From Bacteroidales bacterium (lineage in GTDB: Bacteria; Bacteroidota; Bacteroidia; Bacteroidales; JAIPAP01): a stretch of 34,269 nucleotides of DNA. The notes under the pieces were generated by a model. The model saw only the letters and a program-made list of their open reading frames with translations. It was not told the DNA's origin and ran no database searches. The position numbers and the translations under genes are program-made. Numbering within the stretch: position 1 is the first letter of the stretch; each line of letters starts with the position of its first letter. Shown piece by piece: positions 16,594 to 34,269 of this stretch. Where the stretch lies: positions 1 to 34,269 of the forward strand of contig JAIPAP010000044.1 of assembly GCA_021740045.1 (NCBI GenBank), given 5' to 3'.

Positions 16594-17763
16594 TTATATA
16601 TGTTCTTTGACGATTTGCCAGGCCTGAGAAAAGAGGTCAAAAGTGATAGCAGACCCGCTAACAGGAATGGTTCCTTGCGGACCTTCCGGGGTATCGTTTC
16701 TGTTTACAGCCACAAAGATGGTAGTACCGTATTCAGGAAAATAGTACCATTCGGTTGCAATTCCGGGATTCGATCCGCTATGACCGAGCAACTTCGTTTC
16801 AAATATATTACCCTCAGCGTTGGCGGGCAGTACTCCGATTCCTAAGCCCGTGGATGATTCTGGAGCAAAAGACTCCATAGATGTCATCAGATCAACGGTT
16901 TCCTTTTGAAGTATTTCCCCATTGAATAATTTATCGCTAATTTGAAGCATATCTTCGGCTGTTGATACCCCTGCGCCTGCGGTCCAATCCCATGAGAAAT
17001 TCCAGTTGGCAATGCTTACTACCTCTTCTGTAGTGAAAAGCCAGCTGTAGGCATTCACATTTGGTTCTTCCAAGGCACCCTGCTTACTTAATCGTGTTCG
17101 TGTAAGCTGTGCCGGTTCGGCAATTTTTTCCTCAAATAAGTCAGCTACAGTCTCACCGGTAGCAGCCTCCATGATCATCCCTAAAATATAATAACCGGTA
17201 TTGCTATAGCTAAACGCTGTACCGGGAGAAAAAACCGGCGTGTTTAGGACAGAATGTGACAAAATCTCCTGATTTGTCCATTCCTTGGATGGATTGGCCA
17301 TTAACTCCTGCCAAAAAGAAACATTGTGTGTTATATCAAAGATTCCCGAACTATGATTTAGTAACATTTTGATGGTCATTTGATCACCCTGAGGTATCCG
17401 TTCAGGCAACCATTTTTCTACTGTATCATCCAATGACAATATTTCTTCTTCAATCAGTTTCATGGTTAGCACAGCAGTTAATGGTTTGGAAACGCTTGCC
17501 AACCACACTTGCATATCTGCATTCATTAATTTGGCAGTAGCTGTGTCTGCTGTGCCTGCTGCCAGTAACCAGCTGTCTGTGGGAGTTTTAATACCCAAAA
17601 TGATTCCGGGGATGTTTTCGTCTGCCACTGCTTGTTCTAAAACCGTCTGTAAATCATCACCGAGCTTGTCACTCTCAATGGAATCTTTGTCACAAGCAGT
17701 AATAAAAAAGAGCAAAATCATCAACATTTGCGCAACCATCCTAAAGCAATAATCTTGTTTCAT
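16594..17763 (-). CDS. Lipoprotein serine hydrolase (class C beta-lactamase/DD-peptidase-like)
   Basis: A 389-residue lipoprotein (signal LLFFITAC, Cys24). The serine beta-lactamase/esterase fold is evident: SxxK as SVSK (Ser90, Lys93) in WLASVSKPLTAVL, the second motif YSN (Tyr186-Asn188) in FSYSNTGYYILG, and the third as HSG (328-330) in LLGHSGSNPG. Family members include DD-carboxypeptidases, esterases and D-aminopeptidases; few are true beta-lactamases. Activity is therefore uncertain. The protein acts outside the cytoplasmic membrane. A -7-like box TAAATTTG lies at 17800-17807. No operon partner was seen; the decayed relative lies just downstream. Confidence 0.88.
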   Translation of the reverse strand: MKQDYCFRMVAQMLMILLFFITACDKDSIESDKLGDDLQTVLEQAVADENIPGIILGIKTPTDSWLLAAGTADTATAKLMNADMQVWLASVSKPLTAVLTMKLIEEEILSLDDTVEKWLPERIPQGDQMTIKMLLNHSSGIFDITHNVSFWQELMANPSKEWTNQEILSHSVLNTPVFSPGTAFSYSNTGYYILGMIMEAATGETVADLFEEKIAEPAQLTRTRLSKQGALEEPNVNAYSWLFTTEEVVSIANWNFSWDWTAGAGVSTAEDMLQISDKLFNGEILQKETVDLMTSMESFAPESSTGLGIGVLPANAEGNIFETKLLGHSGSNPGIATEWYYFPEYGTTIFVAVNRNDTPEGPQGTIPVSGSAITFDLFSQAWQIVKEHI

Positions 17764-17807: not shown

Positions 17808-17918
17808 CTTTGCCTGGTATAAATAAAACATTATTCTGCATGGCATTTAAGGCAAACACATTAAAACCGTCACTGGTCTATTAACATTCTGACTAACGTA
17901 AAATTATATTTTTGATGT

Positions 17919-19253
17919 TCAGGTTGTTAATAGATCTAATTCTTCCCTATGGATGTCAAATTTAACCATTTGTTTTTTAATTCTTTTCACAATTCCAAGT
18001 TTTCTTTTCTGGTCAAGAAACAGGTATTCCTTTGGGGGTTGATAAGGAACTTTCTTGGTTATCATTGTCCATATGATTACTCCTAGCTTTCTTGCAGTTG
18101 CTGATACGGCTGCTTGCCTGCCTTTTTTGAAGGCTATCTTTTTAAAGAAATCTGACAAATGGGTATCTTTAAGGTTGCCTATGGCATTGGCAGCCTGGCG
18201 CAGGGCTATTTTTAGTCTGTTACTTCCCTTGGGAACTTTGCTGCTCAATACTTTTCCGCCTGATATTTTATTATTGGGTGCCAGGCGCAACCACGAAACA
18301 AACTCTTTGGATGTTTTAAACTTCTCAAAACCATGTGGTCCTATTTCGCTCATAATACTTAAAACCGTGGCATGGCTAACTCCTTCTATAGCCAGTAAGT
18401 CAACTCCATTGAAATACTGAAAGGCTACCTGATTAAAGTCCTTTATTGTTGCAGCATTTTTGTTTTGTCTTTTGTGAGGTTTTTCGGTGGTTTTGAATTT
18501 TTTCATTTCAGGATGGTCTTTTAAGTATTTCTGCACGAATTTGTCTATCTCTTTATCACATTGCTGGATTTGTTTTTGATAAAACTGGTATGCCTGGAAC
18601 TCTTGCTTCAATCCAAAAAGAAAATCTTCCCGATTATTGCCATGTAGTGCTTTGGCAATTTCCTGCTTTGATTTTCGACAATTATAATGTCTGTGCTCTG
18701 CCAAAGATTCTGGATTGTGATTCCCTTTGCAGATATCTTCAATGATAGCCAACCCCGTCTGTCCACAAATATCTTTTACCACCACGTCAAGGCGGAAATT
18801 TAAAAACTTCAGGTATTTCTGCATTTTGCGGGAAGCCCCGGAAGCCTGATTAACCAGATTGCTTCTTTGTCGGCAATAGGTACGCAATATCTCGGTGGTT
18901 TCATCAGGAAGAAAACTGCTTGTTAAAAGGCCAAGTGAATGTAGCTTCTGTATCCAGCGTGCATCCTTTACATCAGTCTTTCTTCCTTTGGCATTCTTTG
19001 TAAATTTCCCATTGCAAAGCACAACTTCAAAACCATGTCTGATGAGTTCAGTGAAAAGATTTTGCCAATAATCCCCGGTTGACTCCATAGCTACCGAGGT
19101 AATACCATATTCTTTCAGGTGCTGGCAAATAGCCTGTAAATCTTCTGCATAAACACCAAACTCCTGAACATCTTCCAGAGCCTGTCCTACGGCTACATAA
19201 TGCGATTTGCTGCCAATATCAATCCCTGCGGCATTGGGATTGATGATTTCCAT
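17919..19253 (-). CDS. IS110-family transposase (DEDD recombinase)
   Basis: A 444-residue transposase. The N-terminal RuvC-like DEDD domain shows Asp12 in AAGIDIGSKSHYVAVG, Glu57 in SVAMESTGDYW, and Asp94/Asp97 in KGRKTDVKDARWIQKL. The C-terminal Tnp_20 domain begins near VDLLAIEGVSHATVLSIMSE and carries ISGGKVLSSKVPKGSNRLK, with the serine that attacks DNA in this family. IS110 recombinases are guided by a bridge RNA made from a noncoding end of the element. The gene is full length with no frameshift, so the element could be active. Starts at the ATG at 19251-19253. Confidence 0.97.
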   Translation of the reverse strand: MEIINPNAAGIDIGSKSHYVAVGQALEDVQEFGVYAEDLQAICQHLKEYGITSVAMESTGDYWQNLFTELIRHGFEVVLCNGKFTKNAKGRKTDVKDARWIQKLHSLGLLTSSFLPDETTEILRTYCRQRSNLVNQASGASRKMQKYLKFLNFRLDVVVKDICGQTGLAIIEDICKGNHNPESLAEHRHYNCRKSKQEIAKALHGNNREDFLFGLKQEFQAYQFYQKQIQQCDKEIDKFVQKYLKDHPEMKKFKTTEKPHKRQNKNAATIKDFNQVAFQYFNGVDLLAIEGVSHATVLSIMSEIGPHGFEKFKTSKEFVSWLRLAPNNKISGGKVLSSKVPKGSNRLKIALRQAANAIGNLKDTHLSDFFKKIAFKKGRQAAVSATARKLGVIIWTMITKKVPYQPPKEYLFLDQKRKLGIVKRIKKQMVKFDIHREELDLLTT

Positions 19254-19466
19254 TTCCAGTTTCTTTTTTCTTCCCAGGTGAAAAAGTTTTTAAGGGTTAA
19301 TGATAAAAAAGACCCTAAGGAAATGTATCTTTGATTTGAGAATTATTCTGAACGGGGTTCTTGCCTTTGGCGAGACCACCACTGAAATTATCAACAAGTC
19401 CCGACCCCATAGTCGGGACTTTTTACATTTCAACCAGAATGAACGCACGGACTCTCAATGGTACCA
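19254..19466 (-). ncRNA. Candidate bridge RNA region of the IS110 element
   Basis: In the IS110 subgroup the guide (bridge) RNA comes from the noncoding end upstream of the transposase. This 212-bp stretch has the right place and size. It contains a perfect 10-bp hairpin AAGTCCCGAC/GTCGGGACTT (19396-19421) and a smaller one around TCTCGCCAAAGGCAAGA (about 19364-19380, one mismatch). The large hairpin also looks like a terminator if read on the plus strand (followed by TTTT). RNA ends and guide loops cannot be fixed by eye. Confidence 0.35.
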
Positions 19467-19576
19467 TTGCTTAAATCGGTCTTAGACATAGGGCCACTAC
19501 AAATTTAAGCATAGTCGGTTTTAATCCGCCCGTTAGCGCAAGAAATTAATCGAGGTTTCTTGATGGGGGGAATGAT

Positions 19577-19708
19577 GCCCAACGGTTTGCGGCTATGCAC
19601 CGTTGCCATTTTCACTTATTATTTTCTTAATTGAATCAAAGCTCAAATTTACGAGTAATTTTCCTATGAAACACGATTCTGGCAATGGTGTATGAGCCGC
19701 TGTTAGCA
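19577..19708 (-). repeat. attC-like recombination site 1
   Basis: A 132-bp imperfect palindrome. The low-coordinate end is GCCCAAC and the high-coordinate end GTTAGCA. Arms GCGGCTATGCACCGTTGCCA and TGGCAATGGTGTATGAGCCGC pair nearly fully, with one extra base on the high-coordinate arm. The spacer after AAC is 5 nt on one side and 1 nt on the other. The box GTTGGGC on the minus strand fits the integron R' consensus GTTRRRY. It lies 128 bp downstream of the T9SS protein gene at 19,836. A short ORF inside it is not credible. Confidence 0.6.
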
Positions 19709-19750
19709 ACTGGGCATTGTCTTTTCTGTGCGGTGGGGCAGGCAAGCTCT

Positions 19751-19835: not shown

Positions 19836-21419
19836 TTATTGTATGATAATTCTTCTTGTAATTAAGGTCTTGTCGTTCTGAATTTTCATGATATAAAGTC
19901 CGGGGTTTAGTTGTTTGATGTCAAGTTGGGTGGTTCCTGATGAAGCTTTTGATTTTAGAAGAATTCTTCCGTTTATGTCTAAAATTTCAATAATAGTATT
20001 CAGTACTTGATAGTTTACTGGAAAGTCAATATTTAATACTGAATTTGCAGGATTGGGATAAATCTTTATTTCATCAGTTTTCGGCATATTTTCAACTATA
20101 TTTACCGTTGTATCCAAAATACCAAATACCCAGTAGTTTTGCAGCGACCCATAAACAAAATTTGAGCAATTAACATCACCGCTTGGACTATACCGCATCT
20201 CACCAGCAACAGCATATTTATAATCACTATGTTTTACAACACCATATACCCGTTCTGTTACTTCACCTCCGATGCATTGCTGCCAAATCAGGTTGCCAAT
20301 ACTGTATGCTTTAAATATCCAGATTGATGGTTCTTCAGGACTGTTTGATGGATTTCCTACAACATCACCATTAAAAGACTGTGTGTTAGCAAAAACCATA
20401 AAACCACCATCGGATGTTTGAAAAATTCTCTTTGGAGACTCCCCATTAGAGCCGCCATAGCATTTTTGCCAGAGAATGGTTCCCGTATAATCAATTTTTA
20501 TTAACCACACATCATGATCACCATGCCAACCCGAACCAACAAGGTCACCATCCTTCGAGCCACCAATACCTGCAATCAGATAACCATTTTCAACTTCCAA
20601 TAGTTTGTTGACGGCTTCAGGTCCGCTCCCTCCATAACATTGGTGCCACTCAGGGTTCCCAACACTATCCATCTTAAAAACTATTGCATCAGCGCCGCCG
20701 GGAGCCGGATAAACAATACAATCAACATTTCCGCCAATACCATTGGGTTTACCGTACAAACCGGCAAGGTAACCCCCATCACTTGTTTGAATAATGCCAT
20801 TGATAAATTCAAACTGGGATGATCCAATGGATTGATCCCAGTCAGTATTACCAGCACTGTCCAGTTTTATAATCCATCCGTCATAACCTCCCCACCAATT
20901 TGTGATGTCGCCACCCTGGGAGTCAATTTGTGCCGTTGCAATAACTCCTCCATCAGCAGTAGCTTCACCATATTGATCGCCACTTAAAATGCCTATAGTG
21001 TTCCCCAGTGCTCTTTCCCAAAGAATATTGCCGAGGCTGTCTATTTTTGCAACCCATAAATTATAAGCTTCAGGATATGGCTCTAAAGCAGCACCCCCTA
21101 TTAAATAATAGTAAGGATTGCCAATAGCTCTAACGATTCTGAGAGCATGCGCATAATCAAAACATTTCTGCCAAATCAGGTTGCCGGAATCATCAATCTT
21201 AATCAACCAACCACCACCATTACTTTCAAAACATTCAACTTCTCCTCCTCCTGTTCCCGCAATGCCTGTAACTAAATACCCACCATCGGTTTCAGCAATA
21301 TCATAACCCCAGTCTGAGGCCATACTGCCATAACTCTGTTGCCAGTTTATTTGGAATTGGCCATAGGTAAACAAATGGATAGTCAGAAAAGCAACAATTA
21401 ATGTAATCAGTTTATTCAT
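19836..21419 (-). CDS. Large secreted repeat protein with T9SS sorting domain
   Basis: The start is taken at the ATG at 21417-21419, which has a strong AGGAGG nine bases upstream and opens a signal peptide (MNKLITLIVAFLTIHLFTYG). The longer frame to 21,446 has no such support. The 527-residue product carries repeats of the form 'WLIKIDDSGNLIWQKCFD', 'WIIKLDSAGNTDWDQSIGSS', 'IIQTSDGGYLAGLYG' and 'LIKIDYTGTILWQKCYGGS', the beta-propeller-like repeat common in Bacteroidota exported proteins. A type IX sorting domain follows near the end (IYPNPANSVLNI). Function unknown; likely surface-bound or released. It lies just downstream of the giant secreted protein, separated by a hairpin. Confidence 0.85.
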   Translation of the reverse strand: MNKLITLIVAFLTIHLFTYGQFQINWQQSYGSMASDWGYDIAETDGGYLVTGIAGTGGGEVECFESNGGGWLIKIDDSGNLIWQKCFDYAHALRIVRAIGNPYYYLIGGAALEPYPEAYNLWVAKIDSLGNILWERALGNTIGILSGDQYGEATADGGVIATAQIDSQGGDITNWWGGYDGWIIKLDSAGNTDWDQSIGSSQFEFINGIIQTSDGGYLAGLYGKPNGIGGNVDCIVYPAPGGADAIVFKMDSVGNPEWHQCYGGSGPEAVNKLLEVENGYLIAGIGGSKDGDLVGSGWHGDHDVWLIKIDYTGTILWQKCYGGSNGESPKRIFQTSDGGFMVFANTQSFNGDVVGNPSNSPEEPSIWIFKAYSIGNLIWQQCIGGEVTERVYGVVKHSDYKYAVAGEMRYSPSGDVNCSNFVYGSLQNYWVFGILDTTVNIVENMPKTDEIKIYPNPANSVLNIDFPVNYQVLNTIIEILDINGRILLKSKASSGTTQLDIKQLNPGLYIMKIQNDKTLITRRIIIQ

Positions 21420-21447
21420 GTATACCTCCTCTGAGATAACCGGCATA

Positions 21448-27888: not shown

Positions 27889-28006
27889 GGTTATTTTGTT
27901 TTTCTTGTGTGTTGGCTAAATTTTAAGCTCTTTTGGTTTTTTCATGTCAGCTTGTGTTTCGGCAAAAAACCAAATGTGCTTAAATGTGCGGTGGCCTTCG
28001 CCTTGT

Positions 28007-28215: not shown

Positions 28216-28582
28216 ATGAGTAAAAGTACAAAAAATTACAGTTGGCTCAACACCAAGCCTAATTCAGCTAAAACTTTAATCGAAAAAGCCAAAAGCGAAG
28301 CCCCCGGATTTCGGCAGCACGTTGCCAAATTTGAAGAACAGGTAAAGGGAAGCTCACGGATTAATGCCCCGGCAACAAGTAGAGGCAGAATGGGTTGAAA
28401 TTGCACAGACAAGGCTGGGCATCCAGCCAGAGCGCTGTTCAGCCTGTAATAGGTTCTTGATCATAACAACCTGCCTTGTATAATACCACCCGCTTATTTT
28501 ATTGAATCCCCATAGAAAAGCAAAGGCCCGTAGTCCGGAGGCTGAGTTCACCTGTCCGACTGCCGGCGGAACATAAAGCATA
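28216..28582 (+). mobile_element. Internally deleted IS91-like relic, copy 1
   Basis: The first 60 codons (28216-28398; MSKSTKNYSWLNTKPNSAK, then EAPGFRQHVAKFEEQV) resemble the N-terminus of the tyrosine-recombinase partners of Bacteroidota IS91-like elements. Another frame, 28364-28483, encodes 39 residues (MPRQQVEAEWVEIAQTRLGI, then PERCSACNRFL) that resemble the C-terminal tail of an IS91 transposase. The middle of both proteins is missing, so this is an inactive relic. From 28,297 it is about 97% identical to the copy at 33,984. The identity of the parent element is tentative. Confidence 0.45.
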
Positions 28583-28729: not shown

Positions 28730-29959
28730 TTACTTATAATGCCCCAAAACCAACTTTTTCGTCTCAAACATTAAGTTGTGCAGTAATAATGATTGTTCCT
28801 GAAGAAGGCTCATATCATTTTCTCCATTATTAAAATTCCAACAGTTCGTTAAAACAAAAACTGTAAAGTTGTTTGCCGGGTCTGCGTAACACCTGACTGA
28901 AATGCCGGAACCATCTCCACCATGACCATACCCCAGGTTTTTATAATTGAATAATCCCATTCCATAGCCGGTAGAGTTGATTTGAGAGATTGGTACACAA
29001 GCCATCATATAATTGCTTACATAAGCCATTTTGATTCCCGCTTGACCGCTAAGCAGAAGCTGATAAAATTTGCTCAAATCGCGTGCTGAGGTTATGATAT
29101 TGCCTTCACCAACATTTGCAGACATGTTTTGAGTGGTCAGGTTAACAGGCTCACCTGAAAGCCATGCCCAGGAATCAAGATAGGGTTCGGGAATTGTTTG
29201 TTCGTTGCCCATATCCGGAAAACTGGTTTCGTTCAATGCAAGGGGCTTAATAAACTCATCTTCCATAAACTGTCGGATTGATTTACCGCTTACCCTTTCG
29301 ATGATTTTCGCCAGCAGTTGATATCCACTATTTGAGTAAACCCAACCTTCACCGGGTTCAAATTCAAACTTTCCATGCTCGCTGATATAGGAAGTCATTA
29401 GGTCGATCGTCATTGTAAACTCCGGGTTTTGTGAGAAAATACTGTCAAGAAAGCCGGCGCCATCACTATGATTAATTAGATCATAAACTCCTGCTGTATG
29501 ATTAAGTAACTGCCAGATTGTAATCTTGTCTTTGAATGGGATGTTATAGCCTTCCGTATCAGGTAAATACGGAATGTCTTTACCCGGTATCGGGGCAGTG
29601 ACCAAGGAATCGAAATGAAGCAGGCCTCTTTGATAAAGCAATACAATACCGGCAGCCGTAAAAGATTTCGTTGTGCTTTGTCCGCGAAAATGTATACTTT
29701 CCGAAAAGTTATCGGCAAACCCTTGGTGTCCGAATCCGGTTTCGTCGTTATGCATTACACGGATAGCAAAACCTCCGGGAAATCCAGGATATTCTGCTAA
29801 GTAATCAGCATAGGTCTGGTCTGTCAGTGCCTGTATCTTTTCATTCAACCTCGTGTTATCCGGTTGAATATCATCCTCATATTTTGTGCATGACGCGAAG
29901 AATAAAAAAATTACCAGCAGATTGATTAAAAATGTTCTTGGTAAAAATGTTTTTTTCAT
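28730..29959 (-). CDS. Lipoprotein serine hydrolase (class C beta-lactamase-like), cassette gene
   Basis: A 409-residue lipoprotein (signal IFLFFASC, Cys24) of the same superfamily as the gene at 16,594 but clearly different in sequence. Motifs: SxxK as STTK (Ser95, Lys98) in RGQSTTKSFTAAG, YSN (Tyr208-Asn210) in GWVYSNSGYQLLAK, and HGG in LGYGHGGDGSGIS. The substrate is unknown; penicillin-binding-protein-like esterase or peptidase is likely. In the cassette model it is the gene of one cassette, followed by the IS91-like relic and attC-like site 2. No obvious -7 box was seen upstream. Confidence 0.87.
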   Translation of the reverse strand: MKKTFLPRTFLINLLVIFLFFASCTKYEDDIQPDNTRLNEKIQALTDQTYADYLAEYPGFPGGFAIRVMHNDETGFGHQGFADNFSESIHFRGQSTTKSFTAAGIVLLYQRGLLHFDSLVTAPIPGKDIPYLPDTEGYNIPFKDKITIWQLLNHTAGVYDLINHSDGAGFLDSIFSQNPEFTMTIDLMTSYISEHGKFEFEPGEGWVYSNSGYQLLAKIIERVSGKSIRQFMEDEFIKPLALNETSFPDMGNEQTIPEPYLDSWAWLSGEPVNLTTQNMSANVGEGNIITSARDLSKFYQLLLSGQAGIKMAYVSNYMMACVPISQINSTGYGMGLFNYKNLGYGHGGDGSGISVRCYADPANNFTVFVLTNCWNFNNGENDMSLLQEQSLLLHNLMFETKKLVLGHYK

Positions 29960-33908: not shown

Positions 33909-33983
33909 GGTTAGTATAAGAATAGTAGCCGATTGCGGGCTTCATACCTGTCAAGCTACAAGAAAGTTGAAGCGGGCTAAAGA

Positions 33984-34269
33984 GAAGCCCCCGGATTTCG
34001 GCATCACGTTGCCAAATTTGAAGAATAGGTAAAGAGAAGCTCACGAATTAATGCCCTGGCAATAAGTAGAGGCAGAATGGGTTGAAATTGCACAGACCAG
34101 GCTGGGCATCCAGCCAGAGCGCTGTTCAGCCTGTAATAGGTGCTTGATCATAACAACCTGCCTTGTATAATACCACCCGCTTATTTTATTGAATCCCCAT
34201 AGAAAAGCAAAGGCCTGTAGTCCGGAGGCTGAGTTCACCTGTCCGACTGCCGGCGGAACATAAAGCATA
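33984..34269 (+). mobile_element. IS91-like relic, copy 2 (runs to the window end)
   Basis: Aligns to 28,297-28,582 without gaps; I count nine mismatches in 286 bases. The 5' coding part is further damaged (a TAG in the recombinase-like frame at GAATAG), and the transposase-tail frame persists. No functional gene is present. Together with copy 1 it brackets the cassette series in direct orientation. Confidence 0.6.

What the first reader, a model, noticed from the sequence alone, without database searches (positions are those of the whole stretch)
17851..19538. IS110 element sitting inside an attC-like site
Removing the IS110 element joins GGCAAAC-AC-ATTAAAACCG to CGGTTTTAAT-CCGCCC-GTTAGCG plus the TGCTTAAAT/ATTTAAGCA pair. 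This makes a hairpin with the same box and spacer asymmetry (2 against 6 nt) as the cassette sites. An IS1111/IS110 group that targets attC is known from other bacteria. Here the site's orientation is opposite to the minus-strand cassettes, which would make it a different cassette or an inverted piece.
Basis: partly seen in the sequence, partly recalled or inferred. Interest (0 to 1): 0.65.

Follow-up and report, generated by a model that had tools for sequence, protein, structure and literature searches.

The report
RNA-guided IS110 that targets attC
A jumping gene that seems to carry its own guide RNA has landed just behind a gene-cassette recombination site, and most of its examined relatives, nearly all in Bacteroidota, sit in the same kind of place; the fold-back structure that first drew attention to it is probably coincidence.

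Summary
Comparison with 80 relatives puts the element at 17888-19571 (minus). That stem is not enriched in the family.

The conclusion holds in another form. The left end abuts an attC-type site (19574-19709), 7 nt after its CGTT, in the orientation of the minus-strand cassettes. CGTT+7 stands before the left end in 60 of 71 relatives with a readable left junction. For one relative an uninterrupted site was found in two other genomes of its genus.

The leader folds like a bridge RNA, with compensatory changes. Its putative donor guide tracks the element's right end. Its putative target guide tracks the nucleotides between CGTT and the core, and fits the occupied attC better than other attC-like sites of the same locus.

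attC targeting is known for IS1111-group elements (noncoding region downstream). This group is IS110-type (upstream). In two genomes the guide fits the element's own right end instead. New variant of a known kind.

The parts
17888..19571 (-). IS110-type insertion sequence, 1684 bp between two AT dinucleotides
   Evidence: Ends from comparison with 80 relatives, among them five Aquimarina longa copies; empty site for the homologous junction of relative L029, none for the window itself
17919..19253 (-). IS110 transposase, 444 aa (P0001); D12, E57, D94, D97 and S337 invariant among 18 aligned homologues
   Evidence: Pfam PF01548 and PF02371; NCBIfam NF033542; alignment A2; profile match to IS621 8wt6 (E 4.1e-14) and ISCro4 9t56 (E 1.4e-12)
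19311..19495 (-). predicted bridge RNA (seekRNA) in the 5' leader; limits approximate
   Evidence: consensus fold of 24 leaders, 32 pairs, 13 with a sequence in which both sides changed and the pair is kept; MAFFT alignment of 68 leaders
19439..19447 (-). putative left target guide, TGCGTTC plus AT
   Evidence: In the family this stretch matches the 7 nt between CGTT and the left end beyond 10,000 permutations and better than other attC-like sites of the same locus. In the window itself only 3 of 7 match
19345..19353 (-). putative left donor guide, GTTCAGA plus AT
   Evidence: In the family it agrees with the right end beyond 10,000 permutations
19500..19508 (-). TTAAATTTG, promoter-like motif before the predicted RNA (Bacteroidota -7 motif TAnnTTTG, recalled)
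19531..19537 (-). GCTAACG, subterminal box, inverted with respect to CGTTAG of the right end
   Evidence: Exact GCTAACG within 400 nt upstream of the transposase in 69 of 80 relatives and the window
17888..17898 (-). right end CGTTAGTCAGA, with the CGTT+7 layout of the target
   Evidence: CGTTAG in 67 of the 70 relatives in which a right end was found
19572..19573 (-). left AT (core dinucleotide, inferred)
17886..17887 (-). right AT (core dinucleotide, inferred)
19574..19709 (-). attC-type site at whose R' end the element is attached: R'' TTGCTAAC, stem GCGGCTCATACACCATTGCCA / TGGCAACGGTGCATAGCCGC, R' CGTTGGGC
   Evidence: Hairpin z 6.4 and 5.8 against shuffles; limits
16594..17763 (-). ORF downstream of the right end, serine hydrolase family PF00144, same strand as the transposase

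Best explanation
This is an IS110-type insertion sequence, most likely guided by a bridge RNA, of a group found mainly in Bacteroidota whose preferred target is the right-hand (R') end of attC sites. The transposase would use an RNA made from the leader (about 320 nt in the window). One stretch is a guide for the target (7 nt plus AT), another a guide for the element's own right end (7 nt plus AT). Insertion is at CGTT-N7-AT, so the attC stays whole and the element becomes the first part of the next cassette, usually on the strand of that cassette's gene. Shown here: the ends, the attC next to them, an empty site for one relative, compensatory changes in the RNA fold, and agreement of the guides with target and right end. 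Inferred: that the RNA is made and bound, that AT is the exchanged core, and that the element moves with the cassette or drives its expression.
For: CGTT exactly 7 nt before the left end in 60 of 71 relatives with a readable left junction, and in the window. My script preferred CGTT-flanked candidates, so I repeated the count anchored on GCTAACG alone: CGTT 38-55 nt upstream in 59 of 68 loci, against 3, 4 and 4 in three other 18-nt windows. Hairpin z>3 at 33 of 59 CGTT-flanked left junctions, window included, against 38 of 287 other CGTT-N7-A places in the same loci. Unoccupied attC homologues: 27 (28 listed, one, L069, is occupied), all with A and 18 with AT after CGTT-N7. Empty site of L029: L108 93% over 183 nt (13 nt left of the junction) and L109 84% over 220 nt (54 nt left of it), no break. 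Target guide against target: 237 of 406 matches, permuted 167.2 +/- 7.9, 0 of 10,000. Same-locus test: occupied 2.83 against 1.43 matches of 4; higher in 23, lower in 2, equal in 4 of 29 loci; Wilcoxon p 5.7e-5. Donor guide against right end: 83 against 64.6 +/- 3.0, 0 of 10,000. Fold with 13 of 32 pairs compensatory. IS621 profile match.
Against: The window's own target guide fits its target poorly (3 of 7 by eye; 2 of the last 4). No empty allele was found for the window: its downstream flank had no match longer than about 50 nt elsewhere in 60 genomes. 11 of 71 left junctions are not attC CGTT+7: L006 has +8, L058 AGTT+7, L043 and L053 follow another copy's right end, and L010, L014, L033, L049, L050, L051 and L054 have none of these. 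The hairpin test gives z<=3 at 26 of 59. Donor-guide agreement has exceptions: of 18 unique pairs 12 agree in the last five positions, 4 have one mismatch there, and 2 were mis-extracted. Right-hand guides were not looked for. Guides of related elements are not independent; the same-locus test lessens this. No integron integrase passes the family cut-off in the 30 genomes searched, so 'attC' rests on structure and on where homology ends. No experiment.
Confidence: 0.88

Rival explanations
1. One reading: the element interrupts an attC-like hairpin formed by ATTAAAACCG/CGGTTTTAAT with TGCTTAAAT/ATTTAAGCA, in the orientation opposite to the cassettes.
For: The arms exist; the window's stem score is the highest of 52 copies.
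Against: Three arms are inside the element as defined by its relatives; the pairing is not enriched in the family and 4.3% of mismatched pairs reach the window's score.
Confidence: 0.03
2. The whole unit (element plus boxes GCTAACG and CGTTAGTC) is a cassette with its own composite attC and is moved by an integrase; the transposase is a passenger.
For: The boxes look like R'' and R'; in two mini-elements (L045/L047 and L053) they bound a hairpin (by eye).
Against: In full-length copies the segments inside the boxes do not pair beyond mismatched controls (14.77 against 14.39, z 0.88). The constant DNA runs past G^TT by several nt on the right and starts 7 nt after CGTT on the left, unlike a cassette. 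Agreement of guide and target is not expected.
Confidence: 0.05
3. An ordinary IS110 with a short loose target that happens to be common in cassette arrays; attC is not the target as such.
For: L010, L049 and L051 sit at sites without CGTT and with little guide match (by eye); the guide signal lies in four positions next to the core.
Against: CGTT is outside the guide's seven positions yet precedes 60 of 71 left ends; hairpins are enriched there; occupied sites fit the guide better than other attC-like sites of the same locus.
Confidence: 0.14

Closest known systems
IS1111-attC group (ISKpn4, ISPst6, ISPa25; ISPa21 as an attC-associated IS1111-group element)
   Same: IS110/IS1111-type DEDD transposase; [quoted passage not shown] guide RNA shown for ISKpn4 and ISPst6 (PMC11187229, passages; ISPa21 in PMC11616780, passages; the 2008 and 2009 original papers were not seen)
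   Different: IS1111 elements have the noncoding region downstream of the transposase and identifiable sTIRs (PMC11187229); here it lies upstream. The host named in the ISPa21 passage is Pseudomonas aeruginosa; here 75 of 80 record titles name Bacteroidota. Here the guide varies with the attC end that is occupied.
IS621 / ISEc21 (IS110 type) with bridge RNA or seekRNA
   Same: noncoding region upstream (ISEc21, PMC11187229); RNA with target and donor guides that include the core (IS621, PMC11208160, passages); profile match to IS621 8wt6
   Different: Target is the attC R' end; inferred core AT, against CT for IS621; promoter-like motif inside the leader; subterminal box GCTAACG / CGTTAG
Group IIC-attC introns
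   Same: A mobile element that inserts at attC sites (a passage and a reference title in PMC9229058; abstract start of PMC7923331 in a listing)
   Different: Ribozyme retroelement, unrelated machinery

Membership tests
IS110 family | DEDD transposase with RuvC-like and Transposase_20 domains | tested here: met
IS110 type (against IS1111 type) | long noncoding region upstream of the transposase | tested here: met
   321 nt upstream and about 30 nt downstream in the window; similar layout in the relatives read
IS110 type with bridge RNA | left target and left donor guides ending in the core | tested here: met
   by agreement with target and right end; RNA itself not observed
IS110 type with bridge RNA | right target and right donor guides | not tested
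   not searched for systematically
IS110 type with bridge RNA | conserved RNA fold | tested here: met
   24 of 68 leaders folded, mostly near relatives of the window; 13 of 32 pairs compensatory
IS1111 group | noncoding region downstream of the transposase | tested here: not met
IS1111 group | subterminal inverted repeats | tested here: inconclusive
   6-bp CTAACG / CGTTAG near the two ends; shorter than I recall for IS1111
IS1111-attC group | IS1111-type element inserted at attC | tested here: not met
   attC insertion met, IS1111 type not met
attC site (window 19574-19709) | R''-L''...L'-R' imperfect inverted repeat with GTTR in R' | tested here: met
   (the stem passes on both strands; orientation from CGTT and the ORF order)
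attC site | homology between copies ends at the G^TT exchange point | tested here: met
   for attC sites of relatives: 26 of 38 alignments that end at query positions 172-204 end within 0-5 nt of CGTT; none was listed for the window's own attC
integron | integron integrase gene | tested here: not met
   TIGR02249 over cut-off in 0 of 1 own genome and 0 of 29 relatives' genomes; the arrays may be CALINs
attC site | recombination by an integrase | not testable with these tools
   needs an assay

The most novel reading that the evidence does not exclude
A lineage of IS110-type elements, spread mainly through Bacteroidota, lives on gene-cassette arrays by encoding attC R' ends in a variable RNA guide. 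It has arrived at the niche of the IS1111-attC group by another route, re-aims its guide among R' variants, and has at least twice re-aimed it at its own right end (L043 and L053), producing stacks. Because it lands in fixed orientation just upstream of cassette genes while leaving attC intact, it may be carried by, and switch on, the cassette behind it.
Probability: 0.5. Interest if true: 0.7.

Novelty: new variant of a known kind. Interest (0 to 1): 0.57.

Why it matters
It gives a natural data set in which an apparently RNA-guided transposase chooses among many similar sites (attC R' ends), so that guide-target rules and natural retargeting can be tested from sequence. It links two mobile systems, RNA-guided IS elements and gene cassettes, in genomes where no integron integrase passed the cut-off (30 searched). 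If the element rides inside the next cassette, it offers a way for cassette genes to gain a promoter.

Tried and rejected
Composite attC from GCTAACG and CGTTAGTC: not supported in full-length copies, although two mini-elements show it. A first hairpin test left out short attC sites and was replaced, with 60 shuffles per left junction and 25 per control. Rfam, evalue mode, gave one hit over the attC, a miRNA family far below its gathering score. phmmer of the single protein found no solved structure; the profile did. Tyrosine recombinases near attC in Maribacter (L122) are Xer-like by score; two are copies of one protein, one of them broken. Relatives of 38-42% identity on other plasmids (L125-L128), and L089 (44%), show no attC layout by eye, while L124 (61%) and L088 (74%) do; none of these is in the tallies. 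At 43% L075 and L076 still have CGTT+7.

Rows and choices: one search kept the best 80 of 116. Left ends were picked by a script that preferred CGTT; four (L010, L014, L033, L058) were set by a motif by hand and four (L043, L053, L069, L076) read by eye; one search repeats the count without that preference. Unreadable left junctions: L009, L013, L038, L042, L046, L073, L079, L080, L081. The target-guide test used 59 loci with CGTT+7 (window included), 58 unique pairs. The donor-guide test used 65 loci, 18 unique pairs, with two mis-extracted pairs (L002, L019) left in. L053's target guide was read by eye because the pattern missed it. L045 and L047 have identical flanks and both count in several tallies. 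L080 and L081 (26%) are not of this group.

Literature: PMC11187229 (passages and one section), PMC11208160 (passages); PMC8618304, PMC9668308, PMC11616780, PMC11089894, PMC3589745, PMC9229058 (passages); PMC12444791 (reference-list passage); others only in listings. Searches bearing on IS110 with attC; one search was on integrons in Bacteroidota. No title or abstract start in those listings names an IS110-type attC group in Bacteroidota; the library lacks most subscription papers, and supplements and ISfinder were not searched.

Full report
Observation. The transposase is an IS110 protein on the minus strand, 17919-19253. A DNA search finds only this copy in the 3.9-Mb genome; a protein search adds a 34% relative on another contig.

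Ends. One search returned the best 80 of 116 relatives. Upstream of the transposase most share a leader that begins AT(T)CC, has GCTAACG usually 31-37 nt in (further in L004, L010 and L057), and runs into a conserved segment (GACTCTATG...GGCCG...). Downstream they share CGTTAGTCAGA and then diverge. Five copies in Aquimarina longa have the same end sequences (AATCCCTC......CGTTAGTCAGAA) in different surroundings. In the window this places the element at 17888-19571 with AT on both sides. The pairing is not enriched in the family; the window's score is the highest of 52 copies but is reached by 4.3% of mismatched pairs.

Target. CGTT stands exactly 7 nt before the left end in 58 of 67 relatives with a placed left end, and by eye in L069 and L076. 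With L043 and L053, which follow another copy's right end, the count is 60 of 71. L006 has 8 nt, L058 has AGTT, and L010, L014, L033, L049, L050, L051 and L054 have neither. Since my script preferred CGTT-flanked candidates, I repeated the count from GCTAACG alone: CGTT lies 38-55 nt upstream in 59 of 68 loci, and in 3, 4 and 4 of 68 in three other windows of the same width. The DNA before CGTT folds like an attC: z>3 at 33 of 59 CGTT-flanked left junctions (window included) against 38 of 287 other CGTT-N7-A places in the same loci, some of which will be real attC sites. In the window the site is 19574-19709. The stem itself passes on either strand; the minus orientation follows from CGTT at the junction and from the position just downstream of the minus-strand ORF 19836-21446. 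Alignments between attC homologues mostly end at CGTT (26 of 38 of those ending nearby lie within 0-5 nt of it), as expected for exchange at G^TT. Of 27 unoccupied homologues all have A, and 18 AT, after CGTT-N7.

Empty site. The joined flanks of the A. longa copy L029 were searched in 66 genomes of that genus. L108 aligns at 93% over 183 nt, 13 of them left of the junction, and L109 at 84% over 220 nt, 54 of them left of it, without a break. AT stands once in the empty site and on both sides of the element in L029. No such allele was found for the window.

Guide RNA. 24 of 68 leaders, mostly near relatives of the window, give a consensus fold of 32 pairs, 13 with compensatory changes. Two stretches of 7 nt plus AT stand out. 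The second agrees with the element's right end (83 matches against 64.6 permuted, 0 of 10,000): 12 of 18 unique pairs agree in the last five positions, with TCAGA, TCTCA, TCAAG, TTAGA, TTATA, TCAGG, TCAGT and TCAAC forms; 4 (L028, L043, L055, L071) have one mismatch there; 2 (L002, L019) were mis-extracted. The first agrees with the 7 nt between CGTT and AT (237 of 406 against 167.2, 0 of 10,000), with the signal in the four positions next to the core. To lessen host-lineage effects I compared the occupied attC with 45 other attC-like sites in 29 of the same loci: 2.83 against 1.43 matches of 4, higher in 23, lower in 2, equal in 4. The base after the first guide's AT equals the base after AT at the left end in 68 of 68 copies (T 43, C 25), which I cannot fully explain. 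The window's own guide fits its target poorly (3 of 7).

Retargeting. In Belliella filtrata (L043) and Arenibacter latericius (L053) a copy follows directly on another family right end, in L053 that of a mini-element. Their target guides read GGTCAGA-AT and GATCAGA-AT (by eye), which fit CGTTAGTCAGA-AT rather than the usual attC ends.

Consequences. The insertion leaves the attC whole and puts the element at the start of the next cassette. The main ORF behind the right end is on the transposase's strand in 50 of 64 loci (6 opposite, 8 without one), starting a median 53 nt after the right end. That the element supplies transcription to that gene, or travels with it, is inference.

What it is. 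By the criterion of PMC11187229 (passages) the upstream noncoding region makes it IS110-type, not IS1111-type. attC targeting is known for the IS1111-attC group (PMC11187229, PMC11616780, PMC11089894, PMC3589745; passages), so this is a new variant of a known kind. No integron integrase passes the family cut-off in the 30 genomes searched, so the arrays may be clusters of attC lacking an integrase, a class described in PMC8618304 and PMC9668308 (passages).

Noticed in passing
L045 about 2884-2985 (same in L047) and L053 about 2122-2212: Short non-autonomous copies (about 100 bp) with the element's left and right ends; inside them GATAACG or GCTAACG ... CGTTAGTC folds like a small attC (by eye). 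A possible route by which attC-like hairpins arise.
   Followed up: partly
window 27922-27996; L066 and L079 downstream of the right end: Recurrent hairpin-like motif (CACATTTAAGCACATTTGGTTTTTTGCC type) near cassette borders; it underlies the similarity between window 19492-19522 and 27966-27996.
   Followed up: no
L005, right after the element's right end: The ORF behind the element in a Chlorobiota MAG begins like a Cas9 protein (by eye; motif recalled, not searched).
   Followed up: no
G060-G088, e.g. L119:1707-2834 and L122:15249-16316: 29 genomes with these elements have no integron integrase over the cut-off; the three recombinases examined (280-375 aa) are Xer-like and match the integron integrase profile in two pieces. 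What moves these cassettes is unclear.
   Followed up: partly
window 19438 and 19571, and the leaders of the relatives: The base after the target guide's AT equals the base after AT at the element's left end in 68 of 68 copies, as if the guide also had to fit the left junction.
   Followed up: partly
unoccupied attC homologues in L002-L077: All 27 (two of them from identical flanks) have A at the eighth position after CGTT, so cassette starts here share more than GTTR.
   Followed up: partly
window 28292-28582 and 33979-34269: A 291-nt stretch repeated at 97% identity, the second copy running to the contig's end.
   Followed up: no
window 16594-17763 and 28730-29959: Two serine hydrolase (PF00144) ORFs in one array; three other ORFs carry Por secretion tails.
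   Followed up: no
L007 (Woesearchaeota MAG), L045 (Atribacteria MAG): Members of the group on short contigs binned outside Bacteroidota; L045 has flanks identical to L047 from a Bacteroidales MAG, so mis-binning is likely.
   Followed up: no
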